Shown: piece by piece, positions 23,001-44,043 of the stretch
Numbering within the stretch: the stretch's first letter is position 1
Layout: each line of letters opens with the position of its first letter
Assembly (NCBI GenBank): GCA_001464585.1
Contig: LNFF01000009.1
Coordinates: 1-64,000, forward strand
Source: Gammaproteobacteria bacterium Ga0077554
Lineage (GTDB): Bacteria > Pseudomonadota > Gammaproteobacteria > Ga0077554 > Ga007554
Length of the DNA stretch: 64,000 nucleotides
Direction: 5' to 3'
Made by a program: the position numbers and the translations under genes
Notes under the pieces: model-generated
Seen by the model: the letters and a program-made list of their open reading frames with translations, nothing else
Databases searched by the model: none
Told to the model about the DNA's origin: nothing

Positions 23001-26000
23001 AGGCCAGTCATAGGCCAAACGCCCGGCAAAACGGGCGATTTGTTGCTGGATACGGGTGCCGCGATTCATGCTGATCCGGGTGGGCAGGTGACATTATCAT
23101 CCATGGGTAATCTCACCGTGCTGGGGATGATTGATGCGCCCGGGGGTAGTATTGATTTGAAGATTCAACAGTCCAACCCCCAAAACAATGGATTCATATC
23201 CAGCCAGGCCATCTGGCTGGGGCCACACAGTCAGTTGCTCAGCAGAGGGTTTGTGCAATTGCAGGAAAATGACCGGGGCCAGCAACATGGGCAGGTGTTG
23301 CGCGGTGGAACGGTGCAGATCGACGCTCAGCGAGGTTATGTGGTGAGCGCCGCAGGATCCCTGATTGATGTGTCGGGTGTGGCGGCAGATCTGGATTTGC
23401 CGACTGACAGCACTAACACAGTTTCCCATGCCACACGCGTCGCGGGCGATGCGGGGCGTGTGGTGCTCAAGGCGCGTGAAGGCATGTTACTGGACGGTGA
23501 TTGGTTGGCGCATGCGGGTGATGGGGAGGGAGCAGCAGGAGGTACGCTGGAAGTAGCGTTAAATCGTCCCTTCCCTTTCGAAATTATTGACAGCATTGAT
23601 CAACCCCCCGTTCCTGCTGCGCCCCTGCAAATCGTGATCAGCAGTGATGACGGTGCTGGACGTTCCCCGGAAGTGGGGCTGGGTGCGTCCCTTCCTGACG
23701 AGACGAATGGCAAGGCGCTGCTCAGCAGCGCCAAAATACAGTACGCCGGTTTTGATAAAGCTATCTTCAAAAGCCGCGATGAAATTCAGTTTCAAGGCGA
23801 TGTCTCACTCAACTTTAAGCGATCCCTCACGTTGGATGCCCCCGCCATCACTGCGGCAGAGGGCGCGCATGCCACACTGAATACAGCGTATTTCGCACTG
23901 GGCACAAGCACGCCGTCGATGGTAACCCCGCCACTGAGTGGCGATGGCATATTGGATGTGCAGGCCAAGTGGATAGACGTGATGGGTAATAGTGTTTTGC
24001 AGGGCTTCAAGACAGTTAATCTTTCCAGCAGTGGTGACATGCGTCTGCGTGGCACGGAGGGGGCGCCCGGATCTTTGTCTACTGCCGCTGATCTTACGCT
24101 CAAAGCCAACCAGATCTACCCGACTACCTTGAGTCAATTTATCCTGGAGGTTGGCAATAACGACCAGGGCACCCTAACTGTAGACGCGGGCAATGGCGCC
24201 ACCCCGGTGCTTTCCGCTGGCGGCAAGCTTACCCTGCGCGCGCCCAATATTGTGCAACGTGGCGTGCTTAAAGCACCCTTTGGTGAAATTGAGCTGGATG
24301 CTGCTGATACGCTGATACTTGATGCAGGCAGCATCACCTCCACTTCTGCAGAGGGTCAAATTATTCCATTTGGCGTCACGCTCCTGGGGGGAAGGGACTG
24401 GGTTTACAATGTGAACGGAAGTACCACACAGGTGATTGACACGCCGCCGGAGCGGCGCATTCGCCTCACGGGCACGCACATAAATGTGCGTGAGGACGCT
24501 ACCCTGGATCTTTCCGGAGGCGGTGATTTATATGCCACGGAATTTGTGCCTGGCCCCGGCGGGTCGAAAGACGTGCTGGACGCCAGCAATGCCACTAATA
24601 CCTATGCCATTGTGCCGGGTTTGAGTGCAGAGTTTGCGCCGTATGACAACGCCCTCTATCAAGGCTCAAACTTCCAGCCGGGTGACAGCGTGTACCTGTC
24701 GGGTAGCGAAGGCCTGCCCGCAGGAGTATACGCCTTGTTGCCAGCACGGTATGCCCTGTTACCGGGTGCATTTCTGGTGACGCCACGCGCAGGTTCGCAA
24801 GATATGCTACCGGGGCAATCCAAGGCATTGCTCAATGGCGCACCCGTAGTGGCGGGGTATCGTACTGTGGCGGGCACGGATATCCGTGATGCGCGCTGGT
24901 CTGGTTTCGTGGTGCGGCCAGGTGGCAGCGCCCGGCAGGAGTCTGAATTCAAGGAAAGTTACGCCAGCACCTTTTTCGCTGAACAGGCGAATGCCCAGTT
25001 GACCGGCGATGCCGGACGGTTGTCGATTAATGCCAGCCAATCGTTACTGCTGGAGGGGACGCTGCTGGCGAATCATGCGGCCAGTGCGCGCGGCGCAGAG
25101 GTGGATATCACCGCATCGAAAATGGCGATAGTTTCGCGCCGCAGTGGCACCACTGGGGACGAAGCCAATGGCGTTGTGCAACTGGACGTAGCCGCTTTGA
25201 ATAATCTGGGTGCGGCCAGCTTGCTGCTGGGTGGCACCCGCCAAAATACTAAAGAAGGTGTCGAAATCCGGGTTGGTGCTGATGAAGTGATGGTGCAGAA
25301 TGATCAGGATAATTCCCTGACCGCACCCGAAATTATCCTGGTGGCAAAGGATACGCTAACCGTGGAGTCAGGCAGTGTGATTGAAGGCAAAGGCACCTTC
25401 ACTGGTAAAAGCAAGGATCTCATCATTGGCCGAACTGATGATGCAGCCACCCTTGACGTGGATGAAAAAATTGTCGGGGACGGCGCCCTGTTACGCGTCT
25501 CTGCTGGCGCGCAATCTGATATCACACGCTTTAACGTAGAGCGTACCCGTGGCGTTCTGGATGTGGAAGCAGGCGCAGTGTTGCGTGCGGATGCGTCAGT
25601 GGCGCTGGATGCCACACTGGACACCCGTTCCCCGGGTAACATTGAAATGGTGAACGGCGCGCTCAGCCTCGGTGCAAGCCGCATCAGCCTCGGTGAAACT
25701 GCCACGGTGGTGGATGGGTTGGTGTTGTCCAATACGGCGCTTGCCGCACTCACCGGCTTGGCGCGTCTGGATTTGAGAAGTTACAGTTCGGTGGATTTAT
25801 ACGGTGATGTGGTACTCGGCAGCGTGGATACCCAGACTGGCCAGCCGCAACTTACCACGTTGTCTATTGAAGCTGCTGAATTGACAGGTTACCAGAATAC
25901 CGGCAAAACGGCAGTGATCACAGCAGGCAATTTCACTTTTTCGAATCCCGGTAAAGTAGTATCCAGTAATGTTGCGGATGGTAGCGGCAACCTGGTGATT

Positions 26001-29000
26001 GCCGCTAAAGATGTGGTGCTGGGAGATCAGCGCGAAGACCAAACGAACAAGGCAATCAATGGATTCAATGCTGTCAAGGTTATCGCCGACAAAGAAATCA
26101 CCTTTCAAGGCCAGGGTCAGATGAAAGTGGCAGGTGATCTTGATTTGGTGTCTTCGCGTTTAACGGGCGGTATCGGCGCAGATCAGTCCATAGATGCCAC
26201 GGGGCAGGTGAACATTACCCCATCAGCACACGCCGTGACTTTGCCAGCGGTTGCCACGCTCGGCGCACACCTGAACATCACAGGCAAGCGCATTCTACAT
26301 GCAGGTAATATCGAGCTACCCTCTGGCATACTCACATTGGCCGCTAATGGTGTTGATGCGGGCGATGCTGTGACGCTGGTCAGTGGTTCGCAAACTAATA
26401 TGCAAGGCACTGCTAAAACCTTTGGGGATGTGGTGGCGTATGCACCGGGAGGACGTGTAACGCTGGCCTCGGCGAGCGGCAATGTGGATGTACAATCCGG
26501 TGCTTTAATCAATGTCTCCGGCGCAGCAGCGGGGGGCGATGCCGGGACGCTTGCTGTGCATGCCGCGCAAGGCACCGCCTTGATTGCCGGAAATGTGATG
26601 GGTAGCGCAGCAGCGCAGTCGCGCAGTGGTTCTGTAACGCTGGATACCGGTACGTTGGCTGATTTCAGTGCGCTGAATAATGTCCTGAATGCCGGTGGGT
26701 TTGGTGAGTCGCGCAGTGTGCGTGTGCGCCACGGTGACATTAACGTGGCGGGCACGGACACGCTTACCGCGCAGCATCTCAAGCTCGTCGCAGATGGCGG
26801 CAAGATTGACATTCAAGGTACGCTGGATGCATCAGCTAACAAGGACGGAACCATTGGGCTATATGCCAAACAGAATGTCACTTTAAACCCAGGCGCCAAG
26901 CTGGATGCCCATACCACGGGCAATGGCGAACAGGGCGGCAAGGTTACGCTGGCTACCACGGACGGGGAAATTACCCTTGATACCTTGTCTGAAATCAATG
27001 TTTCGGGCGGTGAAAATGGCAAAGGTGGCAGTGTGTTGTTGCGTGCGCCGCGCATTGATACCGACAATGATGGTGTAGATGATGATGTAGCGATTGCTGC
27101 GGTAGCGGGCGCCATCACCGGCGCCAGTTCGGTGGTGGTGGAAGGTGTCAAAGCCTATAACGCCAGCAGGATAAGCGCGTTGGGCGCTACGGTGGCAGGC
27201 GCTAATTTTAATGCGTCTACCACTGGCGTAGACGCCACGGTATTTAATGATACGCAGAATTTTATTACCAACAACAAAGCAAACATCGTTGCGCGCCTCG
27301 GCAACGCTGCATTGCGCGTACGGCCGGGAATAGATATTTACAATAACGGTGATCTTGAATTGGCCGATGAGTGGGATATGTCCATGTGGCGTTTCGATGG
27401 CGAACCCGGCACGCTTACTTTGCGCGCCCAAGGTGATTTGAAGCTTACGAAATCCCTGAGTGATGGATTCGATGGCGCAACGGCTACCGCCAACCTGCAA
27501 GGCGGCGAATCGTGGTCATACCAACTGGTAGCGGGTGCCGACACCGCAAGCGCCGACACCCTGGCATTGTTGCCGCAGGCGCAGCTTGCTGGTAACAAGG
27601 GTAATGTGAAACTGGCCAATAATGCCCTGGTGCGCACGGGCACGGGTGATATTGATATTGCGGCGGGTGCGAACATTGAACTGGGTAATGCACAGTCGGT
27701 GATTTACACCGCAGGTACGCCTGTGGCAGCGCTGGCGGGCTTTACTGCGCCGCCCGCCTCTGCAGGGCAAGCAGCAGGGTATGCAAGCGACGGCGGCAAT
27801 ATCACCCTCACCGCCCAAGGTGATGTAAAAGGCGCGATAACCAAACAATTTATTAATGAATGGTTATTCCGTCAAGCGGGCACCAACTCCAGTTGGTGGC
27901 TGCGCTTCGATCAGTTTCAGCAGAATATCGGCGCGTTAGGCGGTGGCAATATTACAGTGACGGCAGGCCGCGACGTGATCAATCTTTCCGCCGTCATCCC
28001 TACCACCGGCAGGGTGGCGGGTGCCGTGCAAGAGGCGCGCGTGCTTGATATTCAAGGCGGGGGTGATTTATCGGTTACAGCAGGCCGCAATATCCAGAGT
28101 GGCGTGTATTACGTTGGTAGAGGCCACGGCGATCTGCATGCCGACGGGGCTATTACGGGGCGCGCCGTATCTAGTCAAGCGATTCTGCATCCGGTGCTGG
28201 CGTTGGGAGACGGTGACTTCCGTGTGACGGCAAATGGGGATGTCAACCTTGAGACAGCGGTTAATCCCACTATTTTACCGCGTAGTAAATTGCAGGGTGG
28301 ACTCAAGTCGTTTTTCTTTACCTATGACCCCGCCAGTGCCATCAACCTGGTTTCCTTAAGTGGTGATACCGTGATTCATAACAATAATAATAAAGCGGTT
28401 ACCCTTAATATCGATTTAAGACCATCAGGGGCTGAAGAAGCGGTATTAAACATCTATCCTGGCACGTTCACGGCTCAAGCGCTGCAAGGAAACATTCTAC
28501 TCAAGGAGAGCATGGTGCTTGCACCTGCACCGCAGGGTAATTTCGAGTTATTGGCGGCGGGAGACGTAGTGTTGGAGAAAGACGCGAGAGTTATTGTTTC
28601 CGATGCGGATACTGCTGTGCTGCCTGGCCCGATACAACCACAGACAAATTTTATAATTATAAATAACAACCTGGGGGCAGGCGCGACTACTGCGCATGCA
28701 GCCGTGCCGATCCATAAGCTGGATGATGTACCTATCCGCATTATTGCCGAAACCGGTAGCATTATCGGCAATAACGCTCAATTAGTTTTCCCCAAACAGG
28801 CGCGTTTCCAGGCTGGTCAGGATATTCAGGATCTGCGTTTGGAAGGTCAAAATGTGCGTGCTGCCGATGTTACCCGGCTGCAAGCGGGGCGCGACATTGT
28901 GTATACCACCGATAGTAATAGCAGCCGGATTATCCTGGCGGGTTCCGGTCGGCTTGAAATGCAGGCGGGGCGTAATGTCGAGTTGGGTGCTGCTTACGGC

Positions 29001-30122
29001 GTTGAAACGATTGGCAATGCCGCTAACCCCGCCTTGGCAGAGCGTGGTGCGGATGTTGCGGTGATGGCAGGTGTAGGCGCCGCACTGGATTATGCATCAG
29101 TGCTCAATAAATATCTGGCGAGTTATGACTACCGGAACGAGCTGGCGATGTTTATCAGGGATCGTGAACATGACGCGAATCTGACCCGCGATCAGGCGTT
29201 GGCGATCTTTGCCAGTGAAACAGCGGCGGATCAGGCAGATATCCTGGCATCTGTTAAACAGGATTTTACACAGCTTGATGCGTATTCTCAGGCGAGTTTG
29301 CTGTTCTTCAATGAGCTGCGTGAGACCGGGCGTAAAGTCACGGCCTCTGGCGGTGATTACCAACGTGGTTTTGACGCCATTGCCACACTGTTTCCCGCCA
29401 GTAATTATCAGGGAGACATCAGCCTTTACCTCAGCCAGATAAAAACCACCAAGGGCGGCAATATTGATCTGTGGGCGCCGGGTGGTCAGGTAAATGCGGG
29501 GCTGGCGATACCGGACAAAGACCCTAACCAGTTGGGCATTGTGGCGGTGAACGAGGGTAGTGTACGCGCGTTCACCCGTGATGATTTCATTGTCAACGCA
29601 TCGCGGGTGTTTGCCATGCGCGGCGGGGATATTCTGATGTGGTCATCACAGGGAGATATTGATGCAGGCAAAGGAAAAAAGACGGCTTTGGTGATACCGC
29701 CACCCACCATTTCGGTGGATAGCCAGGGTAATGTGAAAACCGATTTTGGCAATGTTGCAGTGGGCAGTGGTATTCGCGCGCTGACGATTGACGGCATCGC
29801 GGCAGGTGATGTGGATCTGATTGCTCCCACTGGTGAAGTCAATGCCGGAGATGCCGGCATCGGAGCGGCGGGTAATCTCAACATCGCCGCATTGCGGGTC
29901 GTGGGCGCCGATAATATCCAGGTGGGTGGCATATCAACGGGCGTGCCAGTGGCGGATACTGGGGGCTTGGGTGGTAGCCTTAGTGGTGTCAGTAATTTGG
30001 GTGGCGAGAGTAAAGTGGCCGACCAGGTAACGCAGGACATGACTAACCAGGCAACTAGTTCCCTCAAGGATACTTTCAAGCCCTCTTTCCTGACGGTGGA
30101 GGTGATTGGTCATGGTGATTAG
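20070..30122 (+). CDS. Giant filamentous-haemagglutinin-type exoprotein (TpsA, DUF3739 type)
   Basis: A 3350-residue secreted beta-helical protein. Residues 1-60 form an extended signal peptide (MNANLFRLVFSVSRG..., cleavage after AAHA). A TPS recognition domain follows, with INQNGIIFGNGAQVNVGSL near residue 160. Thousands of residues of beta-helix-forming G/N/D/V/T repeats come next (GDVT, AGGxITL, LDASG-like turns). A DTDNDGVDDD stretch at residues 2330-2339 resembles a calcium-binding type 3 repeat. Near the C-terminus, YQRGFDAIATLFPASNYQGD, LSQIKTTKGGNIDLWAPGGQ and VNAGLAIP resemble the DUF3739 family of haemagglutinin-like proteins. There is no recognisable CDI toxin tip. GGAG precedes the start by 8 bases. 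Its exporter is the preceding TpsB; the exb/tonB genes downstream suggest linked energised steps. Confidence 0.93.
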   Translation: MNANLFRLVFSVSRGMWVPVWEGARACSAGGRGEARRKTKHAVLQVGAGTLLLMVSAAHAELPVACGGACGVNGNLSWLSNGSAQILPTEVTATGSRLPIFQESQRAILNWQSFNIGAGNEVEFRQQFGADAAVLNRIHQGSASEILGSLKANGQVYLINQNGIIFGNGAQVNVGSLTASTLTIPGLDNADASDNWFINGIFSRPDNTVSHFEGSASGDVIIAAGATLESAKGGRIMILAPNIDNQGRIITPDGQALLAAGDKIYLQSKSDPALRGLLVEIMGTGGTVTNGGEISAPRGNVTLMGFAVNQQGRVSATTSVNANGSIRLLARDNASVSSPGGSDISDIRVFPTRAGSVTLGEGSITEVRPDVADATTSVDQQKFNRSRIEVMGETITLAANSRIVAPSGEVTLSAGLGTAAPGVKGTGTIVLDAGSVIDVAGLTDVALSMEHNLLEVELRGEQLRDSPLQRDGILRGEKVIIDIRKGTPLADVSGYIDGVGKTVSERSVMGGDVTLVSTGDIIMRENAVADVSGGQITYADGYLNTTQLISEGRVYDISEASPDRIYESFTDFTKEHRKWGVTESWGLLGGSNPRGQFAAGYVEGMSAGTLKFIAPGLVLDGTLRGGVTPGVHQREATTLPSAGTLIIGDAAQASQQTPDFRTSDVILQASRTAIGGDSVGDHQPLVMSTEFLQQGGFGQARIYSNGRISVPSGVVLTAPAGGEITLVGREVDVQGGMNAPAGTLKLQATSTIGNPEPGNVTLGEGASLLTRGLWVNDRPEIAGDRVPSVALIDGGSISLAAQGDVILGAGSMIDVSGGAWLSASGNFKSGKGGDIALSAVENVHLGGELQAYALTNGALVGRGGTLTLRTQEINIQPEPNVEFNLTSDPTFNQDTLNTLTLTPDFFQSGGFSKYNLTGTTGVTITADTQLWPQAKNRLLQRDYALQPSGSNIDDFSPVIVLPQDQRTPVNLTLQSSQRPVIGQTPGKTGDLLLDTGAAIHADPGGQVTLSSMGNLTVLGMIDAPGGSIDLKIQQSNPQNNGFISSQAIWLGPHSQLLSRGFVQLQENDRGQQHGQVLRGGTVQIDAQRGYVVSAAGSLIDVSGVAADLDLPTDSTNTVSHATRVAGDAGRVVLKAREGMLLDGDWLAHAGDGEGAAGGTLEVALNRPFPFEIIDSIDQPPVPAAPLQIVISSDDGAGRSPEVGLGASLPDETNGKALLSSAKIQYAGFDKAIFKSRDEIQFQGDVSLNFKRSLTLDAPAITAAEGAHATLNTAYFALGTSTPSMVTPPLSGDGILDVQAKWIDVMGNSVLQGFKTVNLSSSGDMRLRGTEGAPGSLSTAADLTLKANQIYPTTLSQFILEVGNNDQGTLTVDAGNGATPVLSAGGKLTLRAPNIVQRGVLKAPFGEIELDAADTLILDAGSITSTSAEGQIIPFGVTLLGGRDWVYNVNGSTTQVIDTPPERRIRLTGTHINVREDATLDLSGGGDLYATEFVPGPGGSKDVLDASNATNTYAIVPGLSAEFAPYDNALYQGSNFQPGDSVYLSGSEGLPAGVYALLPARYALLPGAFLVTPRAGSQDMLPGQSKALLNGAPVVAGYRTVAGTDIRDARWSGFVVRPGGSARQESEFKESYASTFFAEQANAQLTGDAGRLSINASQSLLLEGTLLANHAASARGAEVDITASKMAIVSRRSGTTGDEANGVVQLDVAALNNLGAASLLLGGTRQNTKEGVEIRVGADEVMVQNDQDNSLTAPEIILVAKDTLTVESGSVIEGKGTFTGKSKDLIIGRTDDAATLDVDEKIVGDGALLRVSAGAQSDITRFNVERTRGVLDVEAGAVLRADASVALDATLDTRSPGNIEMVNGALSLGASRISLGETATVVDGLVLSNTALAALTGLARLDLRSYSSVDLYGDVVLGSVDTQTGQPQLTTLSIEAAELTGYQNTGKTAVITAGNFTFSNPGKVVSSNVADGSGNLVIAAKDVVLGDQREDQTNKAINGFNAVKVIADKEITFQGQGQMKVAGDLDLVSSRLTGGIGADQSIDATGQVNITPSAHAVTLPAVATLGAHLNITGKRILHAGNIELPSGILTLAANGVDAGDAVTLVSGSQTNMQGTAKTFGDVVAYAPGGRVTLASASGNVDVQSGALINVSGAAAGGDAGTLAVHAAQGTALIAGNVMGSAAAQSRSGSVTLDTGTLADFSALNNVLNAGGFGESRSVRVRHGDINVAGTDTLTAQHLKLVADGGKIDIQGTLDASANKDGTIGLYAKQNVTLNPGAKLDAHTTGNGEQGGKVTLATTDGEITLDTLSEINVSGGENGKGGSVLLRAPRIDTDNDGVDDDVAIAAVAGAITGASSVVVEGVKAYNASRISALGATVAGANFNASTTGVDATVFNDTQNFITNNKANIVARLGNAALRVRPGIDIYNNGDLELADEWDMSMWRFDGEPGTLTLRAQGDLKLTKSLSDGFDGATATANLQGGESWSYQLVAGADTASADTLALLPQAQLAGNKGNVKLANNALVRTGTGDIDIAAGANIELGNAQSVIYTAGTPVAALAGFTAPPASAGQAAGYASDGGNITLTAQGDVKGAITKQFINEWLFRQAGTNSSWWLRFDQFQQNIGALGGGNITVTAGRDVINLSAVIPTTGRVAGAVQEARVLDIQGGGDLSVTAGRNIQSGVYYVGRGHGDLHADGAITGRAVSSQAILHPVLALGDGDFRVTANGDVNLETAVNPTILPRSKLQGGLKSFFFTYDPASAINLVSLSGDTVIHNNNNKAVTLNIDLRPSGAEEAVLNIYPGTFTAQALQGNILLKESMVLAPAPQGNFELLAAGDVVLEKDARVIVSDADTAVLPGPIQPQTNFIIINNNLGAGATTAHAAVPIHKLDDVPIRIIAETGSIIGNNAQLVFPKQARFQAGQDIQDLRLEGQNVRAADVTRLQAGRDIVYTTDSNSSRIILAGSGRLEMQAGRNVELGAAYGVETIGNAANPALAERGADVAVMAGVGAALDYASVLNKYLASYDYRNELAMFIRDREHDANLTRDQALAIFASETAADQADILASVKQDFTQLDAYSQASLLFFNELRETGRKVTASGGDYQRGFDAIATLFPASNYQGDISLYLSQIKTTKGGNIDLWAPGGQVNAGLAIPDKDPNQLGIVAVNEGSVRAFTRDDFIVNASRVFAMRGGDILMWSSQGDIDAGKGKKTALVIPPPTISVDSQGNVKTDFGNVAVGSGIRALTIDGIAAGDVDLIAPTGEVNAGDAGIGAAGNLNIAALRVVGADNIQVGGISTGVPVADTGGLGGSLSGVSNLGGESKVADQVTQDMTNQATSSLKDTFKPSFLTVEVIGHGD

Positions 30123-30303: not shown

Positions 30304-30507
30304 AGGTGTTTTGTTTTCAGGATAATGCGGAAGCGCGCATACCCTCCGACTGATCCACTGATGCGTTCTTTCTGGCTTATCAAGAACCCCACCATAACAA
30401 TTCTGTAACATTTGACAGGCAAAATACACCATCACCTAAAATCATGTGTGCATGCCGTGGCGAGCCGCATATGTTTTTTTAAAGTTAACAGGCAAATTAA
30501 ACAAGTC

Positions 30508-32307
30508 ATGAAATTGCAATCCAATAAAAAAATAGCACATATTTTTCTCCTGTTTGCCAGTTTAATCTCCCTGTTTCCCAATATGGCGCATGCCTGGTGG
30601 AGTGATGACTGGGCATACCGTAAAAAGATTATCCTCAATACCACCGCAAGTGGCTCAGACATCAAAACCGACCTGGCATCCGTGCCAGTGCTGGTGCGCC
30701 TGCACACCGGTAACTTTGATTTTTTAAGTGCGAAAGATGATGGCGCGGATCTGCGTTTTGTCAGTGGTGACGACACCACCCCACTGAAATACCATATTGA
30801 AAAATACGATGCATTGAATGAGCTCGCAGTTATCTGGGTGCAGGTGCCGAAGCTGACCGCAGCATCTGATGCCAACATTGTCTGGCTGTATTATGGCAAT
30901 GATTCCGCAAGTGCCGGTGATGACCCCAAGGGCAGCTACGATGTGAATCAGGTGGCTGTATATCATTTTGGCGAGCCAGGCGCTCCCAAAGATTACACAG
31001 CCTATGCCAATAATGCGACACCGTCTGATGCTGTAAGCCAAGCTGCGGCGTCATTGATTGGCCCGGGAGCAACCTTTGCCGAGACAAATGCTATTACTAT
31101 TCCCGCCACTCCTTCCCTCTCCTTTAATACAGAAGGAGGATTCACTTTTTCTGCATGGATAAAGATCACCGCCCCGCAGAAAAATGCCCTGCTTTTCTCA
31201 CAGAATGATGGTACCTCCCCTCTGGTGATTGGCATCGATCAAACCAGGGTTTATGCCGGTACTCCAGGTAAAGAGGCGCGCCCCAGTGCCGAATTGACGC
31301 TCAATACATGGCATCATTTAGCAGTCACTGCTGGCAAGCGACTGGTGATTTATATTGATGGTGTTGAAGCGGCGGCGGCAGATGTTGCCTTGCCGATGCT
31401 GATCAGTAATATCACGCTAGGCGCGTCATACAACGGCGAAATGGATGAGGCGCAGATTTCAAATATTGCGCGTTCGGCTGACTGGATAAAAACCGCAGCA
31501 CGTGGTGAAGGTGTAGATGCGAAACTGATTACGTACGATGTCGATGAACAGAATGAAGGCGGCGGCACTTCTTATTTTACCACCACTATGCAGTCTGTCA
31601 CCTTTGATGGTTGGGTGGTGATCGTTATCTGTATGGCCATGGCCGCTGTGAGCTGGGTTGTGATGGTGAACAAGGCGGTTGTCATCGGCAGGGCGGCAAA
31701 AGATAACGAAAAATTTCTCGCTTCGTTTCAGAAGCTGGCCACTGATCCAGGGATGTTGGATCACGATGATGATCAGGATGATCTGGCGAATAAAAAAAGC
31801 CCGTTCGCTGCAGCATTGTTTGGCGCCCATGACCATTATCAAAGCTCGCCGATTTATCGCATTTATCATGTCGGTATCCAGGAGGTCAAGAACCGTTTTG
31901 GTAAAACCGATCCCAAACAGATCGGCAAGATGCTCACCCCGCAGAGCATCGGCGCGATCCGCGCCAGTCTTGATGCTGCGATGGTGAGAGAAAATCAGAA
32001 ACTCACCAGCCAGATGGTATTGCTTACCATCGCCATCAGTGGTGGCCCTTTCCTTGGTTTGCTCGGTACCGTGGTAGGGGTGATGATAACTTTTGCGGCG
32101 ATTGCCGCCAGTGGTGATGTTAATGTCAACGCCATTGCTCCTGGTATTGCGGCGGCGCTGGTCGCCACGGTGGCGGGGCTGGTGGTGGCGATACCGGCGC
32201 TGTTTGGCTACAACTATCTGCTTAGCAAGATCAAGAACATCACGGCAGATATGCAGGTATTTGTAGACGAATTTGTACATAAAGTTGCTGAGAATTACGG
32301 AACATAA
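30508..32307 (+). CDS. DUF2341-LamG-ExbB/TolQ fusion protein
   Basis: A 599-residue membrane protein starting at the ATG at 30508. A signal peptide (residues 1-29, ends NMAHA) is followed by a DUF2341 domain (WWSDDWAYRKKIILN, then VPVLVRLHTGNFDF). A LamG/concanavalin-like domain (about residues 150-350, with GGFTFSAWIKI and NTWHHLAVTAGKRLVIYIDG) comes next. The C-terminal third is a MotA/TolQ/ExbB proton channel with three membrane spans near 369-392, 504-535 and 541-573 (SGGPFLGLLGTVVGVMITF, AALVATVAGLVVAIPAL). Ordinary ExbB lacks the long exported N-terminus, so this places a carbohydrate- or protein-binding module in the periplasm on the channel. ExbD follows after 12 bases. Confidence 0.9.
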   Translation: MKLQSNKKIAHIFLLFASLISLFPNMAHAWWSDDWAYRKKIILNTTASGSDIKTDLASVPVLVRLHTGNFDFLSAKDDGADLRFVSGDDTTPLKYHIEKYDALNELAVIWVQVPKLTAASDANIVWLYYGNDSASAGDDPKGSYDVNQVAVYHFGEPGAPKDYTAYANNATPSDAVSQAAASLIGPGATFAETNAITIPATPSLSFNTEGGFTFSAWIKITAPQKNALLFSQNDGTSPLVIGIDQTRVYAGTPGKEARPSAELTLNTWHHLAVTAGKRLVIYIDGVEAAAADVALPMLISNITLGASYNGEMDEAQISNIARSADWIKTAARGEGVDAKLITYDVDEQNEGGGTSYFTTTMQSVTFDGWVVIVICMAMAAVSWVVMVNKAVVIGRAAKDNEKFLASFQKLATDPGMLDHDDDQDDLANKKSPFAAALFGAHDHYQSSPIYRIYHVGIQEVKNRFGKTDPKQIGKMLTPQSIGAIRASLDAAMVRENQKLTSQMVLLTIAISGGPFLGLLGTVVGVMITFAAIAASGDVNVNAIAPGIAAALVATVAGLVVAIPALFGYNYLLSKIKNITADMQVFVDEFVHKVAENYGT

Positions 32308-36291: not shown

Positions 36292-37347
36292 ATGTTCACA
36301 GTCGAGCAATTACTCAATCCCATCAGGGGTGCTAAAGCCTGTGGAGAGGATTTGTCGTTTTCAAGAGATCTGGATGCGATTGCCGAAGCCCGCCGTTTTG
36401 ATGATGCAACCCTGGATCAGGGGGCGTGGGAAACCGAGTTAAAAGAGGCGGACTGGGGCTTTGTCGTTGAGCATTGTGCAAGGCTGATTGAATCACAGAG
36501 TAAAGATTTACGTTTGGCGGTCTGGCTGACGGAGGCCAATGCAAAAGTGAATTATTTTGCCGGGCTGGGGGATGGCTATTTGTTGCTGGCCGGATTGTGC
36601 GACCGCTATTGGGATGAGCTTTATCCCTTGCCCGATGCAGGTGATCAGGAGCAGCGGATTGGTAATTTAAACTGGCTGCTGGCGCGTTCCGCGCGGTTAG
36701 TGCGGGAAGTCCCGATTACAGAAGGCAAAGGCACGGCATTTTCTACGCTTGATTTTGATGCGGCGCGGTTGCGCTCAGGAAATACGGAAAGAACGGCGGC
36801 TGAAGCAGGTAAAACGGAAGGCGGGCTAAAGCTGGCAGAGCTTGAGGCCGCACGCCGCAAAAGTTCACGCGCATTTTTTGAAAAACTGTTGATTGATGTG
36901 CGGCACTGTATGGCGGCATTGGCGCAATTGGAAGCGTCAGTTGATGCGCGGTTGGGAATCGAGGGTCCGGGTTTTTCAGCGGCTAAGGAATCACTGGAAG
37001 GCGTGGTGCGTACGGTGTCCCGTTTTGCGCAGGAGGCGGGTGTGCGCACGCATGCTTCCACAAAAGATGAATTGGAACATGTCATGGATAAGAGTAACTC
37101 TGCCATACCAGCAGCGACGCTTGGGGTGATTCAAACACGTGCGCAAGCGCTGGCCCAGTTGCGTCTCGTTGCTGATTTTTTCCGGCGCACGGAACCTCAT
37201 AGCCCAGTGGCCTATTTGGCCGATAAAGCCGCCACTTGGGGAGACATGCCCTTGCATGCCTGGCTGGGCACAGTGATCAAAGACCCTGCGTCGCTGGCGC
37301 ATGTGGAAGAGCTGCTGGGACTGAAGGCGCCACCGTCCGAGAAATAA
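36292..37347 (+). CDS. tssA: Type VI secretion protein TssA (ImpA N-terminal family)
   Basis: A baseplate/sheath-priming component of the type VI secretion system. The 351-residue protein has the ImpA N-terminal domain (LLNPIRGAKACGEDLSFSRD, DWGFVVEHCARLIESQSKDL, RLAVWLTEA, CDRYWDELYPLPD). The C-terminal part is helical. It is short-form TssA. It converges on the leftward T6SS genes and ends 20 bases from the OmpA-like gene. Sheath, Hcp, VgrG and ClpV genes are not in this window. Confidence 0.9.
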   Translation: MFTVEQLLNPIRGAKACGEDLSFSRDLDAIAEARRFDDATLDQGAWETELKEADWGFVVEHCARLIESQSKDLRLAVWLTEANAKVNYFAGLGDGYLLLAGLCDRYWDELYPLPDAGDQEQRIGNLNWLLARSARLVREVPITEGKGTAFSTLDFDAARLRSGNTERTAAEAGKTEGGLKLAELEAARRKSSRAFFEKLLIDVRHCMAALAQLEASVDARLGIEGPGFSAAKESLEGVVRTVSRFAQEAGVRTHASTKDELEHVMDKSNSAIPAATLGVIQTRAQALAQLRLVADFFRRTEPHSPVAYLADKAATWGDMPLHAWLGTVIKDPASLAHVEELLGLKAPPSEK

Positions 37348-37367: not shown

Positions 37368-38150
37368 TTACTGCGCAATTCTGAACTCAATACGGCGGTT
37401 GCGCGCGCGTCCTTCCACCGAGTTATTATTGGCAATCGGCCTGTCAGAACCTTGTCCTGAGGCTGCCAGCCTTTCTGCGTTAAGGCCTTTTGCGGCAAGA
37501 TAGCTTTTTACTGTGTCGGCACGGGCCCGGCTCAGGGATAAGTTGCTGGCGCGCAGCCCCTGATTGTCAGTGTGGCCGATGATATCCACCTGCTTGTCTT
37601 TAAGCTTGAGTAACGGCTCCACCATCTCATCAAGAACAGCTTGTCCTGCTGGCGTCAGTGTTGTTTTGCCGGTTTCAAACTCAACAATCCGGTTACCTAA
37701 TGTCGCATCCAGGATATTTTGTTCTGCAGCAGGAACATGTAAGCCGTTTTTGACGGTATAGGTGGGGTTGAGTTGGGTGGCCATGGCGCTGGCGATGTGT
37801 TGACGTTGCGCTTCATTAGCGACTTCGCCGCGCACACTGATGGTGTTGCCATCAATTTTTAATTGTCCCCGGCTAATTAATTTCAGGTCAGGATTAATCA
37901 GCTTCCGCACATAGCTGCTCCAGTTCGCCGGCATGACAACCGGCCCTATGGCGATCTGGTCGACCACTTTTTCAGTGCCATATACTTCGCGCAGGCGCGC
38001 TAATATTGCCGCTTTGCTGCTTTCATCGGGGACAGTGCCGGTAACCAGAACCTGGCCAGGCTTGGGGCTGATCACCGCAGGCGCAAGATTTTGCGCCCAG
38101 CCCTGGCTGGAGATCATTAACAGGGGAATCCACAGGTAATGCCAACGCAT
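37368..38150 (-). CDS. BON/OmpA-domain periplasmic or outer-membrane protein
   Basis: A 260-residue exported protein from the ATG at 38150 behind GGAG (not the upstream TTG). The signal ends near GWAQ. An N-terminal BON-like region (LVTGTVPDESSKAAILARLR, KIDGNTISVRGEVANEAQRQ) is followed by an OmpA peptidoglycan-binding domain (IVEFETGKTTLT, VDIIGHTDNQG, LSLSRARADTVKSYLA, GRARNRRIEFRI). It starts 4 bases after tagF ends, so it is cotranscribed with T6SS genes and probably anchors the apparatus to peptidoglycan in the manner of TagL-type proteins. Confidence 0.85.
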   Translation of the reverse strand: MRWHYLWIPLLMISSQGWAQNLAPAVISPKPGQVLVTGTVPDESSKAAILARLREVYGTEKVVDQIAIGPVVMPANWSSYVRKLINPDLKLISRGQLKIDGNTISVRGEVANEAQRQHIASAMATQLNPTYTVKNGLHVPAAEQNILDATLGNRIVEFETGKTTLTPAGQAVLDEMVEPLLKLKDKQVDIIGHTDNQGLRASNLSLSRARADTVKSYLAAKGLNAERLAASGQGSDRPIANNNSVEGRARNRRIEFRIAQ

Positions 38151-38154
38151 GTCG

Positions 38155-39141
38155 TTAAGCTCCAATAAATGCTGCGCGAAATAAATCGAGAGCCGATTTC
38201 AGGGAAAGTTGCGGTTGCACCAGATAGCTCGACAGCTTTTTGATTCCGTAATCACTGTCCATCTGTTCTTCTACCCATTGCGCATCTTCAAACGCAATAT
38301 GATGTTCCATGCCGACGCGCGGATCCATGATGGCGTGCAGTGTCTGTGCGGACGCGCCACTGAAACCTAATACCATGACCGGGTGCGGTTCGATCCGGGT
38401 AAAAAAAAGTGCCAGTTCAAAGTCTGCGCGGAGCAGGAAAGGTGTGATTATATGCATCCAGAAGGCTGCCACCAGGTAGCGATACATCGGATCCGTCGGC
38501 AAGGGCAGAATAAGGCTCTTTTCCAGGCGTGATGAGTTGCTTGCCATGACGGGCTGCAATAAAAATCCAAGCGCAAGCAATAATTGGCGCACCGTTCCTG
38601 CAAAGCCTGCCTGCGCAAGCATGGCATCGAGGGAGCCGATAGTTTGCATATCCAGAAAATCAGTGAATACGGCGTCGTAAGCCAACGTTCCCACTTCCAG
38701 ATCAATCATCAGGGATGACAGGTTATGGAGCGCAACGGTTGGGTCGGGTGATGCTGCTGCATCCGTGGTCGGCGCTTCCAGTCGACTCCATAAGCGTGAC
38801 AACACCATTGGGCTGCGGTTAACAAACCCAGACGGTTCGTCAATGTCCATCGTGCTCATGGCGAGAAAGGGAAAGCGCCGATGCGCCTGGTCACTGCTGG
38901 CAATGATATGCCCCGCAATGGCGCGTTTTTTGTGTGGCCCAATGAAGGCGAAGTGCAGGGGCGGTATCGCATCATAGGTGATTTTCCAGCGCGGATCAGC
39001 GGAAAGAAGTGTCATCGCCTGCGCCAGCCAGTCATCAAGAATCGTAATCAACGGCATATTATCCGTGGCTTTAATGAAATCATCACGTGCCGGTATTTTA
39101 CCAAAATAGCCAACCCTGGTTTGTGTCGCCGTGTTTCTCAT
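38155..39141 (-). CDS. tagF: Type VI secretion-associated protein TagF (ImpM family)
   Basis: A 328-residue cytosolic protein from the ATG at 39141, overlapping the tssM 3' fragment by four bases (ATGA). The N-terminal TagF/ImpM domain has VGYFGKIPARDDFIKATDN, LLSADPRWKITYDAIPPLHF and RRFPFLAMS. TagF is known elsewhere as a negative post-translational regulator that sequesters Fha or blocks assembly. The C-terminal about 170 residues are a less conserved extension. Confidence 0.88.
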   Translation of the reverse strand: MRNTATQTRVGYFGKIPARDDFIKATDNMPLITILDDWLAQAMTLLSADPRWKITYDAIPPLHFAFIGPHKKRAIAGHIIASSDQAHRRFPFLAMSTMDIDEPSGFVNRSPMVLSRLWSRLEAPTTDAAASPDPTVALHNLSSLMIDLEVGTLAYDAVFTDFLDMQTIGSLDAMLAQAGFAGTVRQLLLALGFLLQPVMASNSSRLEKSLILPLPTDPMYRYLVAAFWMHIITPFLLRADFELALFFTRIEPHPVMVLGFSGASAQTLHAIMDPRVGMEHHIAFEDAQWVEEQMDSDYGIKKLSSYLVQPQLSLKSALDLFRAAFIGA

Positions 39142-39704
39142 CGCGCGGCCCCTGTTGCTTGGGACGCAATCGGCGGCAGGGCCAGACCACCAACAATATT
39201 TGCGGGAAGCTTTATGCCACGGAAGCTGGTGCCTTGCGGCGTAGTGGACGTGGTGGCTGCGCCAGTCACCTGGGGGCTGCTGATAATTTTTAAATCCAGG
39301 GATATGGCAACATTTCCATTGACCCACGTTAACTCAAACACGCCACTTTCTTTGCGCTTGCGCGTGGCGGCGTTAATCATGCGCTCTAACCCAAAACGGC
39401 CAGGGTGATTAACCACTTCTATGGCGCGGCCATCAAAGGTGATGGCGCTAATGCGGGCGCCGGGTGTGCCTTGCGGGTTGGGCCACACCAGGTTTGCCCA
39501 TTGCGACTGCGCGTTGCGGTAACGTAATGGCTGTCCATCAATTTCGACGGTATATTCCAGCGTGCCCGGCGCAGGGAGGAGTCGAATCTGGAACACGGTT
39601 TGCGCTTCAGCCGCATTCGCCGGTGCTGCAGCGCCACCCACACTTAAGGGAGCGACCCAACTGGCGAAGTTTGAGATCACCTGGGGTGACAGGGTGATGC
39701 CCAT
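39138..39704 (-). pseudogene. tssM: Detached C-terminal domain of tssM
   Basis: A 188-residue frame with the TssM/IcmF C-terminal domain (LEYTVEIDGQPLRYRNAQSQ, then VWPNPQGTPGARIS). It is in the same frame as 39711-42923 and separated only by TGA plus the codons for Ala-Asn, so it is the end of one original gene. The ATG at 39704 could allow reinitiation after the TGA, but no good ribosome site precedes it. The product would lack a signal peptide or membrane span, so on its own it would stay in the cytoplasm, not the periplasm. Confidence 0.8.
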
Positions 39705-39710
39705 GTTGGC

Positions 39711-42700
39711 TCAGGTCTTCGGTTCAAGCGCATCGCCACGCCGTATCAGCAGCGGCCCCATGGATGTATTAACGAACTTGGCAATCGCGCCTTCAGCGCC
39801 AAATACATGGCCAATTTCCGCAGTATTTGCTTCGATTCTGGAATCTGGCGCGAAGGGATATTTGTTTGCCAATGTTCTCTGGAAAGGCTCATACACCTGC
39901 GCACGCCAGGTTTTGTTGATCTCAGCTTCAGTAGGCAGAATAATCACTGCAAACGACTGTATTAATGGCCGGACCAGAATGGGCCGGATCGCTTGTTTTT
40001 GTGTGTCCGTCATACCTGAGAGCATCTGTTCATCGACATATTTCAGCGCATCGGCCAGCTCGGAACTGCTACCTTCCAGTGTCTGCTGCATGAGCTGTTT
40101 GGCGCCTGGGCCCGTGTCACCCTGATTTTTAAGTTGATTGAAGCGGCTGCGCAATTTGGATAATGACACCATGTAACCCTGCATCAATGTCGCGCCTTTG
40201 TCGCGTGCTACCACTAGCTTGGCAACACCTGCGAATTCCTTGCCGATCGGACCCATGGGGATTTCTGCCTTTGCCGCCGTCACGTTTACGTTGACATTAA
40301 CCTGTGAGGGCGCCTGGCGCAGGATGGTTTCCTTGAACCAGCCAATGATGCCGCGTTGCGCGCGCTGCAAACCTTCATTGACCAGCGATGGATTGTCCCA
40401 CGAGGTTTCCTGGTAGACGGTATTTACCAGTTTGGTGATGGGTGAGGTCTGCGGGTCACCCAACCGATTCATGGCAGTAACCGCGTTATCAAAGCCATTC
40501 AGATCTGTAATAGCCACGCCCTGGATGAATTTCCGCCACTCCCTGGCGTATTCAATTTTGTATTGTGTGGCCAGCGCTTTTTGAATCTGTTCAGGGCTGC
40601 CTTCCAGTGTCAAATCATCTTTAGCAGTGGTTTTCAGTACCCAGTCAGTACTTTGTAATTCTTTATTTGCGGCGTTCCTGAAGGCATCCTCAATGAATGT
40701 TTCCCAGGCGTCGCGTGTAAACGTGCCAGGAATAGCATAGCTTCCGGCAATCAACCCTTGATCCTGTTCGCCAACAATCCTGGCTACGGTCATGGCGGGA
40801 AAGCGGGTTGATGCACGGGCTTTGATATCGGCATAGACGCGGTCGCGCGCCGCCATGCCGCGCACCACGCGCCGCAAGTTGTCACGTGACTGATCCACCA
40901 GTGATAAATTGTTGTCTATCAGCGGCCATGAGGGATCATTCACCTGTGCCAGATAAAATGTAATTAACCGTTCAGCGCTACGGATCATCTGCTCGCGCGG
41001 CATGGCGCCCCGGTTGCTCTCCAGCCAGCCACGCCAGAAGCGTGTCAACTGATCATTGAGGTGACCCGATTCCACACGTGATTTATCGCCCAGCATCAGG
41101 TAGGTTTTTAACGAGTTGTAGCCATCTTCCACGTTGGTAGGCGAGGCTTCTTCGTAGGGCTGTGCCGTGCCCGTTGCATGCATCGATGCCGAGGTGGCAG
41201 GGTTTTCAGGTTGTAATGGACGTGATGCAGGTTGCAGCTTGTTAGCTGACAGATTCACCTCAGATAAAAAAGCTTCAATATTAGCTGATACGGGTTTGAG
41301 CATCACTTCCTTGATGCCAGAAAAATATTCTTCACGTAATTTACGTTCCAGCAGATCTCCTTGATAGAGTCCCAATCCAAGGGTTAGTGGTGGGCCATCA
41401 CGGTATTTTTCAAGCTGCTCAATACGATCCTGCAAAATTTCCAGCGCTTCAAAACGTGACTGCAAATCAACGCGGTTATCCTGTAATTTAACGGCCATCT
41501 CCAGATCAGCCTGGATATTGGCGGTTAATTGTTGATTGCCCATGTATGACCAAAGCCAGCCACCCAAAGACAAACCCACCAGCGCCGTTGCAGCGAAAAA
41601 CAGCGCATAGCGCAGCCGAATTTTGCTGTGGCTCGCATACTGGGATACCAGATCTTTGTCAGCAAAAATCACCTTTCTAAATAGATTCGATAAAAAGAAG
41701 CCATGCTTGAAAGAAATGTCAGAGGGTTCCTGCGCGGGCAGCGTCAGATTGAAGCGCTCTGCAACGCGTTCAGAGGTGCTGCTTGCAGAGGAACCTTCTT
41801 GCAGGGCGCTGGTGAAATAGAAGCCACGAAACACCGGTTTGAACTGAAAAGGGTTTTCTTCGAAGAGCGTGGCGATGAAGGCACGCAAGGGGCTTTTTAT
41901 GGAATAAAATTCCAGAGGGAACGTAAAAACGCCCGCAGGCATGCGATCTCCACGATTCAAGGCCATGCTGGCCAGGCTCATTTCTTTCAGGCCATCATAA
42001 AGTTCATCGAAGCGGTCATCGAAAAATGCCAGGACATCCTGATTTGAATTATTCAGATTGTAGGGTAGCGTGGCGCCCCATACGCGATTTTGTTCATCCT
42101 GTTCGGTATCAATAAAAAATTCACTGAAACCATTAATTAAATCAGCTTTTGTAAACATGATATAGACTGGCGCAAACACCTCCAGTTTCTCGGTGAGTTC
42201 CTGTACGCGCTGGCGAAGGTTTTTGGCGAGATTAATGCCGAATTCTGGACGGTTTCCCATTAGCTCAGCAATGCTTACGGCAATAATAATGCCGTTGATT
42301 GGTGCGCGCTTGCGATGTTTTTTCAGGAGCGCCAGAAACCCAAACCATTCCTTACGGTCTTCTTCACGCACTGAATAACGTCCTGCCGTATCCAGCAGAA
42401 TGCCCTCGGTAGTGAAGAACCAGTCACAGTTGCGTGTGCCACCCACCCCTTGAATGACTTTGCCGTGCTTGTCTGCAAAAGGAAACTTCAGCCCTGAATT
42501 GGCGATTGCGGTACTCTTGCCAGCCGCCGGGTTACCAATGACCATGTACCATGGCAATTCGTATAAGGCAGCCGATCCTGAGACCAGCCCTAACTTGGAA
42601 GTCTTGAGCGTGGAAATGGCGTCCAGCAGGCGCGTGCGAATTGCCGCTATTTCATCACGTTGCAGCGCATCGGCTTTAGTGGAGGGTTTATTGGTTTGCT

Positions 42701-42923
42701 GCTCCAGCATCACATCAAGTTGGCGCGACTCTTTTTTCGCGCGCCACCTTTTTACCCACCATACTGTTAGCCAGGTGAGCAGGGCAATGCCGAGTATCAC
42801 ACCCGCCCAGATGGCGGCGATTTGCAAGCTGCTGGCGCCCAGAAATAAAAATGCCGCAAGCGCTAAAAAGCCCAGCACGACCAGGGTGCGGGTATCCGTG
42901 AGAAATTGCCAAATTCGTTGCAT
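39711..42923 (-). CDS. tssM: Type VI secretion inner-membrane protein TssM (IcmF), truncated by TGA
   Basis: The large inner-membrane component of the TssJLM complex. It has two N-terminal membrane spans (about residues 14-58), a Walker A motif GNPAAGKST at 130-138 in the cytoplasmic NTPase-like domain, a third span near residue 450 and a long periplasmic part. The 1070-residue frame ends RRGDALEPKT then TGA, where the family normally continues with Trp (as in EP-x-T-W). The next codons in the same frame continue the domain (39138-39704). A single TGG to TGA change explains the break. Without the C-terminal domain, contact with TssJ may be lost. TssL and TssJ genes are not adjacent. Confidence 0.9.
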   Translation of the reverse strand: MQRIWQFLTDTRTLVVLGFLALAAFLFLGASSLQIAAIWAGVILGIALLTWLTVWWVKRWRAKKESRQLDVMLEQQTNKPSTKADALQRDEIAAIRTRLLDAISTLKTSKLGLVSGSAALYELPWYMVIGNPAAGKSTAIANSGLKFPFADKHGKVIQGVGGTRNCDWFFTTEGILLDTAGRYSVREEDRKEWFGFLALLKKHRKRAPINGIIIAVSIAELMGNRPEFGINLAKNLRQRVQELTEKLEVFAPVYIMFTKADLINGFSEFFIDTEQDEQNRVWGATLPYNLNNSNQDVLAFFDDRFDELYDGLKEMSLASMALNRGDRMPAGVFTFPLEFYSIKSPLRAFIATLFEENPFQFKPVFRGFYFTSALQEGSSASSTSERVAERFNLTLPAQEPSDISFKHGFFLSNLFRKVIFADKDLVSQYASHSKIRLRYALFFAATALVGLSLGGWLWSYMGNQQLTANIQADLEMAVKLQDNRVDLQSRFEALEILQDRIEQLEKYRDGPPLTLGLGLYQGDLLERKLREEYFSGIKEVMLKPVSANIEAFLSEVNLSANKLQPASRPLQPENPATSASMHATGTAQPYEEASPTNVEDGYNSLKTYLMLGDKSRVESGHLNDQLTRFWRGWLESNRGAMPREQMIRSAERLITFYLAQVNDPSWPLIDNNLSLVDQSRDNLRRVVRGMAARDRVYADIKARASTRFPAMTVARIVGEQDQGLIAGSYAIPGTFTRDAWETFIEDAFRNAANKELQSTDWVLKTTAKDDLTLEGSPEQIQKALATQYKIEYAREWRKFIQGVAITDLNGFDNAVTAMNRLGDPQTSPITKLVNTVYQETSWDNPSLVNEGLQRAQRGIIGWFKETILRQAPSQVNVNVNVTAAKAEIPMGPIGKEFAGVAKLVVARDKGATLMQGYMVSLSKLRSRFNQLKNQGDTGPGAKQLMQQTLEGSSSELADALKYVDEQMLSGMTDTQKQAIRPILVRPLIQSFAVIILPTEAEINKTWRAQVYEPFQRTLANKYPFAPDSRIEANTAEIGHVFGAEGAIAKFVNTSMGPLLIRRGDALEPKT

Positions 42924-43080
42924 GGTGTCGGGAGTCGTCTAGGTTAATGTTCTATGTCGGTGTGTGTGGCGATGCGGGCAAAGCTTCTGCCATCTTCGCT
43001 GCGGTCATGGAGGCTTCGATGACGCTGGCCGCCGTGTGAGGTTGAGTCAGCTATTCTAATGAGGGCGCGAGCCTGCTGTT

Positions 43081-44043
43081 TCATTTGTTTAATAAACCCG
43101 GCACACGCAATTCCGTATGACCGAAATCCATCAATTTCCAGCGTCCGCCCCACTGCATTCCGACGGATTCGGCGACTTTGCCATAAAGCTGGTAGCCGCG
43201 CATTGCCCAATCATCTTTTTCTGAAATCACCAGCTTTCCGTCACGCAAAAAGGCGCAGTCGGCGGCCAGGCCGTACTGGTGATAACTTTCAAAAGCGGCC
43301 GCATCCGTTACGTGTGTTTTCTGGTGGGCTAGCCTGTCCTGACGCTCAGGACTACGGTAGCCTTCAAGCAGTACCATGTCATAGCCATGCTTTTCTTTCA
43401 TTATTTTGAAGATCAATAATAAACGTTGCGTAAAATCGTGATTGAGCAGTTGCCAATCGCGGCTGGCGCTGCTCAGCAAGGGACGCGTTTGCAGGATTTC
43501 TTGCGTGGTGAACACAGTGGGCGGTAATGCCACGGGCGGCACCAGTTGCTCGCCTTTCAGAAGGTCGGCCACGTGTACATTGACATCGCGCGTTGACACG
43601 TCAAAGCCATTCAGCATGGTTTTGCCGCTGATCAGCCACGCAAGTAGAGGAGGAAGGCAGAGTAGGGTTGCGCCAGCCAGAAACAGCCAGTAATGTTGTT
43701 TTATCAGATGCTGCCCGGCGTGCAGGGTGGGTGTGACGATGACGTGTTGCAGTGGCTCTAATGTATTTATTTTTTGATTTTTAATTATATTAAAGCGATT
43801 TCTGGTTTGTGCTCCTGCTTTGGCGAACGCATGGGCTGCAAATTCCCGGCTGGAGGGAAAGAAAGCCAGCCCGGCAAGCAGGCAAGCCAGCAAAAAATAG
43901 AGTGTCACGGTTAAAAAAAGCACGGAAAACCTTGTGTGAGGCTGTTGTGTTAAACGGCTCCCATCACCGTCTTCAGAATAGCTTACCGATTGTTTACTTT
44001 TTCGCGGATCTGTATAATAATTGACAAGCTCCTGCTTTAGCAA
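43081..44043 (-). CDS. Membrane-anchored M15 peptidase, TagX-like
   Basis: A 320-residue protein with two hydrophobic spans (about residues 38-62 and 118-138) and a C-terminal M15 D,D-/L,D-peptidase domain. Zinc-site motifs are ESYHQYGLAADCAF (His...Asp) and MDFGHTEL (His), and YDMVLLEGYRSPERQ is typical of the family. TagX of Acinetobacter, a peptidoglycan hydrolase needed to build T6SS, has the same plan. Position next to tssM suggests a similar cell-wall-opening role. The frame starts with TTG at 44043 and no good ribosome site is seen; the true start is uncertain. Confidence 0.82.
   Translation of the reverse strand: MLKQELVNYYTDPRKSKQSVSYSEDGDGSRLTQQPHTRFSVLFLTVTLYFLLACLLAGLAFFPSSREFAAHAFAKAGAQTRNRFNIIKNQKINTLEPLQHVIVTPTLHAGQHLIKQHYWLFLAGATLLCLPPLLAWLISGKTMLNGFDVSTRDVNVHVADLLKGEQLVPPVALPPTVFTTQEILQTRPLLSSASRDWQLLNHDFTQRLLLIFKIMKEKHGYDMVLLEGYRSPERQDRLAHQKTHVTDAAAFESYHQYGLAADCAFLRDGKLVISEKDDWAMRGYQLYGKVAESVGMQWGGRWKLMDFGHTELRVPGLLNK

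What the first reader, a model, noticed from the sequence alone, without database searches (positions are those of the whole stretch)
39708..39716. tssM interrupted by a single in-frame TGA at a conserved Trp site
The 1070-codon frame ends EPKT-TGA, and the same frame continues after the stop with the TssM C-terminal domain. Family members usually have Trp at this point, so TGG to TGA is the simplest cause. Possibilities are a sequencing error, a recent null mutation silencing the T6SS, readthrough, or reinitiation at the ATG six bases downstream.
Basis: partly seen in the sequence, partly recalled or inferred. Interest (0 to 1): 0.6.

Follow-up and report, generated by a model that had tools for sequence, protein, structure and literature searches.

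The report
Broken tssM in decaying secretion locus
A gene for the membrane anchor of a bacterial "spear-gun" (type VI secretion) carries a premature stop, and this is ordinary decay: nearly all other parts of the machine are already missing from this genome.

Summary
On the minus strand, tssM (42923..39138) has an in-frame TGA at 39711-39713, codon 1071. The frame then continues for 190 more codons with a clear IcmF_C domain. All 80 named relatives, and an intact orthologue in a genome of the same family (G006), have tryptophan there. It is the only gene split this way that a scan of its 101.8-kb contig found.

The context explains it. The assembled genome (2.91 Mb, 97.1% complete) has no TssC, TssF, TssJ, TssK, TssL, Hcp or VgrG. 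G006 carries all of these, most in a main cluster elsewhere on its chromosome. Inside this locus, the PAAR tip-protein gene next to tssM is reduced to a 64-bp scar, and the adjacent ~490-aa gene is gone. A congener keeps a fused, frameshifted tssJ/tssL scar.

So the stop most likely sits in a remnant of a lost type VI system; it does not silence a working one. Nothing supports rescue: no long homopolymer, no ribosome site at the downstream ATG, and a re-initiated domain would lack an export signal. Sequencing error cannot be excluded without reads, but would not change the reading of the locus. Ordinary; interest low.

The parts
39711..42923 (-). tssM, 5' part: 1070 codons (IcmF-related_N, IcmF-related, IcmF_helical)
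39711..39713 (-). premature in-frame TGA at codon 1071, a column that is Trp in all close relatives
39138..39710 (-). continuation of the tssM frame: TssJ-binding C-terminal (IcmF_C) domain; ORF from ATG 39704 is 188 aa
38155..39141 (-). tagF (TagF_N), intact; ATG overlaps the tssM terminal stop (ATGA), so translation was probably coupled
37368..38165 (-). OmpA/BON-domain protein of the T6SS locus, intact
36292..37347 (+). tssA (ImpA_N), intact
43010..43073 (-). 64-bp remnant of the PAAR gene: 81% to the 5' end of the G006 PAAR gene, start codon gone, one-base insertion, truncated
42924..43009 (-). deletion junction: the rest of PAAR, a 259-aa ORF and a 485-aa gene lie here in G006 and are absent
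43081..44043 (-). M15 (VanY-like) peptidase, TagX-like by family and position only; frame intact but faster evolving than in G006

Best explanation
This is a true, recent nonsense mutation in tssM within the remnant of a type VI secretion system that this lineage is losing. A related genome carries the system in two loci. The main cluster (sheath, baseplate, Hcp, TssJ/K/L) is missing from this genome, and the accessory locus (M15-PAAR-490 aa-tssM-tagF-ompA-tssA) is being eroded. With no machine to serve, the stop is neutral or nearly so. Shown: the stop, the conserved Trp column, absence of seven component families from the assembly, the PAAR scar, and the scar in a congener. Inferred: that the stop is in the living organism and not an assembly error, that the main cluster was present in an ancestor, and the order of losses.
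For: TssC, TssK, Hcp, TssF, TssL (DotU), VgrG/GPD and TssJ give no match in the own genome; every one of them rings in the same-family genome G006, and the E. coli control rings each time. G006 has the same accessory locus with intact tssM (81%) and a separate main cluster. The PAAR gene is a 64-bp scar, E=5e-12. G006 and the named relatives L030-L032 have M15-PAAR-~485 aa upstream of tssM. Congener G001 keeps only a TssJ-like stretch running into a TssL stretch in another frame. dnaX, the main-cluster neighbour in G006, has no T6SS genes beside it here. The amino-acid rate of TssM before and after the stop is not significantly raised against G006, which fits a recent event. Precedent: in classical Vibrio cholerae one T6SS-disabling deletion was followed by further hits, including a premature stop in vasK/tssM (PMC8578542).
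Against: The assembly is a 44-contig draft at 97.1% completeness; an island can be missed, so absence of the main cluster is strong but not absolute. The tssM 5' part, tagF, the OmpA gene and tssA keep intact frames and are not accelerated, as expected for recent decay but also for retained function. No reads were available.
Confidence: 0.8

Rival explanations
1. The stop is a sequencing or assembly error and tssM is intact in the organism; the locus would still be a T6SS remnant.
For: A single changed codon with an otherwise clean frame and an unaccelerated C-terminal domain. No read data.
Against: No other split gene was found in the 101.8-kb contig. The neighbouring PAAR scar and the missing core genes make a true loss of function likely. 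No homopolymer lies near the site.
Confidence: 0.12
2. The gene is expressed as a split or recoded protein: stop-codon readthrough, re-initiation at ATG 39704, or slippage as in Citrobacter rodentium tssM1.
For: tssM genes rescued by recoding exist (PMC4256274). The ATG is six bases after the stop.
Against: Longest homopolymer in tssM is 6 nt, none near the stop; the stop is in the same frame as the rest, so a frameshift would not bypass it. No ribosome site at the ATG. A re-initiated domain has no export signal, while the domain acts in the periplasm on TssJ, whose gene is not found.
Confidence: 0.04
3. The truncated 1070-aa TssM with TagF, TssA and the OmpA-domain protein is kept for a role outside type VI secretion.
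For: Intact frames and low pairwise dN/dS against G006 for the TssM N part (0.06) and TagF (0.14); no rate increase.
Against: Pairwise divergence mostly predates the loss, so low dN/dS does not show present selection. PAAR decay and a faster M15 gene show erosion in the same locus. Neither congener held has a match to this tssM.
Confidence: 0.04

Closest known systems
Classical-biotype Vibrio cholerae vasK (tssM) premature stop (PMC8578542)
   Same: A structural tssM homologue truncated after another T6SS gene was already disabled; stepwise decay.
   Different: There an 8-nt deletion and frameshift in a genome that keeps the large cluster; here a single in-frame TGA in a genome without the main cluster.
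Citrobacter rodentium tssM1 / Yersinia pseudotuberculosis tssM3 (PMC4256274)
   Same: tssM interrupted before the TssJ-binding C-terminal domain.
   Different: There a poly-A tract and out-of-frame remainder allow transcriptional slippage, and in C. rodentium both forms are needed; here no tract, an in-frame stop, and no TssJ gene found.
Intact tssM of the same accessory locus in G006, Glaciimonas and other Oxalobacteraceae relatives
   Same: Orthologous gene with neighbours tagF, OmpA-type gene and tssA; Trp at the column.
   Different: Full length; G006 has a main T6SS cluster and, like L030-L032, PAAR and a ~485-aa gene upstream.

Membership tests
TssM/IcmF family (T6SS) | IcmF N-terminal, central and helical domains | tested here: met
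   PF14331 E=2.9e-85, PF06761 E=1.9e-73, PF21070 E=1e-8
TssM/IcmF family (T6SS) | C-terminal TssJ-binding domain in the same continuous reading frame | tested here: not met
   domain is encoded (PF06744 E=6.7e-24) but follows an in-frame TGA; filed as a broken copy, not a functional member
Functional type VI secretion system | sheath, baseplate, tube, tip and membrane-complex genes | tested here: not met
   no TssC, TssK, TssF, Hcp, TssL, VgrG/GPD or TssJ in the assembled genome; TssB, TssE, TssG and ClpV not searched genome-wide
Recoded tssM (transcriptional slippage type) | long homopolymer close to the stop and remainder in another frame | tested here: not met
   no run above 6 nt, none near the stop; remainder in the same frame
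Separate re-initiated C-terminal gene | own ribosome site and conservation of the split in relatives | tested here: not met
   anti-SD energy -1.9 at ATG 39704, 59% of in-gene ATGs as good or better; relatives carry Trp and no stop at this column
Pseudogene in a decaying locus | independent disabling lesions in neighbouring genes of the same system | tested here: met
   PAAR 64-bp scar and loss of the ~490-aa gene; main-cluster families not found
Pseudogene in a decaying locus | lesion present in reads or other isolates | not testable with these tools
   no reads and no second genome of the species held

The most novel reading that the evidence does not exclude
The locus has been repurposed: a TssM shortened to 1070 aa, with TagF, TssA and the OmpA-domain protein, is kept as a membrane assembly with a role outside type VI secretion.
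Probability: 0.03. Interest if true: 0.6.

Novelty: new member of a known kind. Interest (0 to 1): 0.12.

Why it matters
It is one more case of stepwise loss of a type VI system, caught at an intermediate stage: main cluster gone, accessory locus half eroded. It also warns that an isolated tssM/tagF/tssA hit should not be annotated as a working T6SS. There is no new mechanism.

Tried and rejected
(1) Slippage or recoding as in Citrobacter: no homopolymer tract and wrong frame relation. (2) Re-initiation: no ribosome site, no export signal. (3) Generally poor assembly with many false stops: no other split gene found in the contig. (4) TGA as a sense codon: 18 of the long ORFs in the contig end in TGA, tssM itself does, and its other Trp positions use the ordinary codon. 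(5) Looking for an empty site of the main cluster beside dnaX: this genome has unrelated genes there, so the cluster is absent at that place, but the ancestral place is unknown since the G006 cluster is surrounded by repeated, transposase-like ORFs. (6) The dN/dS rows for OmpA and TssA used wrong frames and are disregarded. (7) A search for the neighbourhood of the G001 scar in this genome found only a 34% match, probably a paralogue.

Full report
Check of the observation. The tssM frame on the minus strand runs from ATG 42923 for 1070 codons and ends EPKT-TGA at 39711-39713. The same frame continues to a second stop at 39138-39140. Before the stop lie IcmF-related_N, IcmF-related and IcmF_helical; after it lies IcmF_C at E=6.7e-24. 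The stretch across the stop matches solved TssM structures (6hs7, 6ixh, and the C-terminal domain entries 4y7m and 4y7l). In 80 named relatives (57-74% identity; Glaciimonas, Collimonas, Janthinobacterium, Duganella, Massilia, Ralstonia, Paraburkholderia and others) and the orthologue in the same-family genome G006, the column is tryptophan in all 81. A search over 114 related genomes gave an in-frame stop only in this genome. A codon-usage scan of the 101.8-kb contig for coding frames cut by one stop gave ten pairs. Apart from tssM these are adjacent genes: the five other pairs scanned with Pfam fall in different families, and the rest lie in the TolQ-TolR-TonB-porin run and flgB/flgC. tssM is the only split gene found.

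What surrounds it. The locus holds tssA (+), an OmpA/BON protein, tagF, tssM and an M15 peptidase. The tagF start overlaps the terminal tssM stop, so translation was probably coupled (sequence reading). G006 has the same order with intact tssM at C7:710.8-714.6 kb, but between the M15 gene and tssM it carries a PAAR gene, a 259-aa ORF and a 485-aa gene. The named relatives L030, L031 and L032 also have PAAR and a ~480-490-aa gene there. Further relatives often differ in this stretch: PAAR was found in 25 of 80 loci. Here only 157 bases separate M15 from tssM. Of these, 64 bases (43010-43073) match the 5' end of the G006 PAAR gene at 81% (E=5e-12), without its start codon and with a one-base insertion. 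This is a second, independent lesion.

Is there a T6SS at all? In G006 the main cluster (ClpV, TssG, TssF, TssE, Hcp, TssC, TssJ, TssK, TssL) lies 260 kb from tssM. In the own genome, TssC, TssK, Hcp, TssF, TssL, GPD/VgrG and TssJ give no match, while each rings in G006 and in the E. coli control. The genome is a 44-contig draft, 97.1% complete. The neighbour of the G006 main cluster, dnaX, sits in this genome beside unrelated genes. Congener G001 has no match to this tssM, but keeps a short stretch where a TssJ-like start runs into a TssL-like middle in another frame. Its flagellar region has no T6SS locus at the place where this window has one. Loss of the system is thus seen in more than one species of the genus.

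When. Tajima counts of unique changes for G000 and G006 against up to eight outgroups each show no significant excess in TssM before the stop, TssM after the stop, tagF, the OmpA gene or tssA; the M15 gene is faster in this lineage (chi-square up to 5.1). The nonsense mutation therefore looks recent, or is an error; the rate test cannot separate the two.

Rescue. The described rescue of an interrupted tssM uses an 11-A tract 28 nt before the stop and a remainder in another frame (PMC4256274). Here the longest homopolymers are 6 nt, at codons 63, 201, 269 and 551, and the remainder is in frame. The ATG six bases after the stop has an anti-SD energy of -1.9, typical of in-gene ATGs (mean -2.2), against -3.3 to -9.1 for nine neighbouring gene starts. 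The tssM start itself is also weak by this measure (0.4), so the measure is a hint and not proof. A product started at 39704 would have no export signal, whereas this domain binds TssJ in the periplasm (PMC4256274). TssJ itself is not found in the genome. Low-level TGA readthrough cannot be excluded.

Verdict. This matches stepwise T6SS decay described in classical Vibrio cholerae (PMC8578542), and in the Ralstonia solanacearum complex about 23.5% of auxiliary T6SS clusters carried loss-of-function mutations (PMC11481896). A sequencing error would remove the stop but not the decay of the locus.

Noticed in passing
43081..44043 (minus) and L114:6704-7543: M15 (VanY-like) peptidase beside the T6SS locus, TagX-like by family and position; evolves faster in this genome than in G006.
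   Followed up: partly
L162:4336-4853 (G001 contig 78): Scar of a T6SS main cluster in a congener: TssJ-like 5' part running into a TssL middle part in another frame, with nothing of tssK between.
   Followed up: partly
30412..32307 (plus): DUF2341 and LamG-like domains fused to a MotA/TolQ/ExbB proton-channel domain, followed by TolR-like, TonB-like and Porin_5 genes.
   Followed up: no
20070..30122 (plus): A 3350-aa ORF whose translation looks like a filamentous-haemagglutinin-type exoprotein (by eye, not searched).
   Followed up: no
L111-L112 (G006:C7 425-458 kb): The G006 main T6SS cluster lies among repeated ORFs that look like transposases, and VgrG-type matches there are in several pieces.
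   Followed up: no
G002:C137:48907-49893 and G002:C145:33-839: Congener G002 has VgrG/GPD-type genes without any other T6SS family tested.
   Followed up: no
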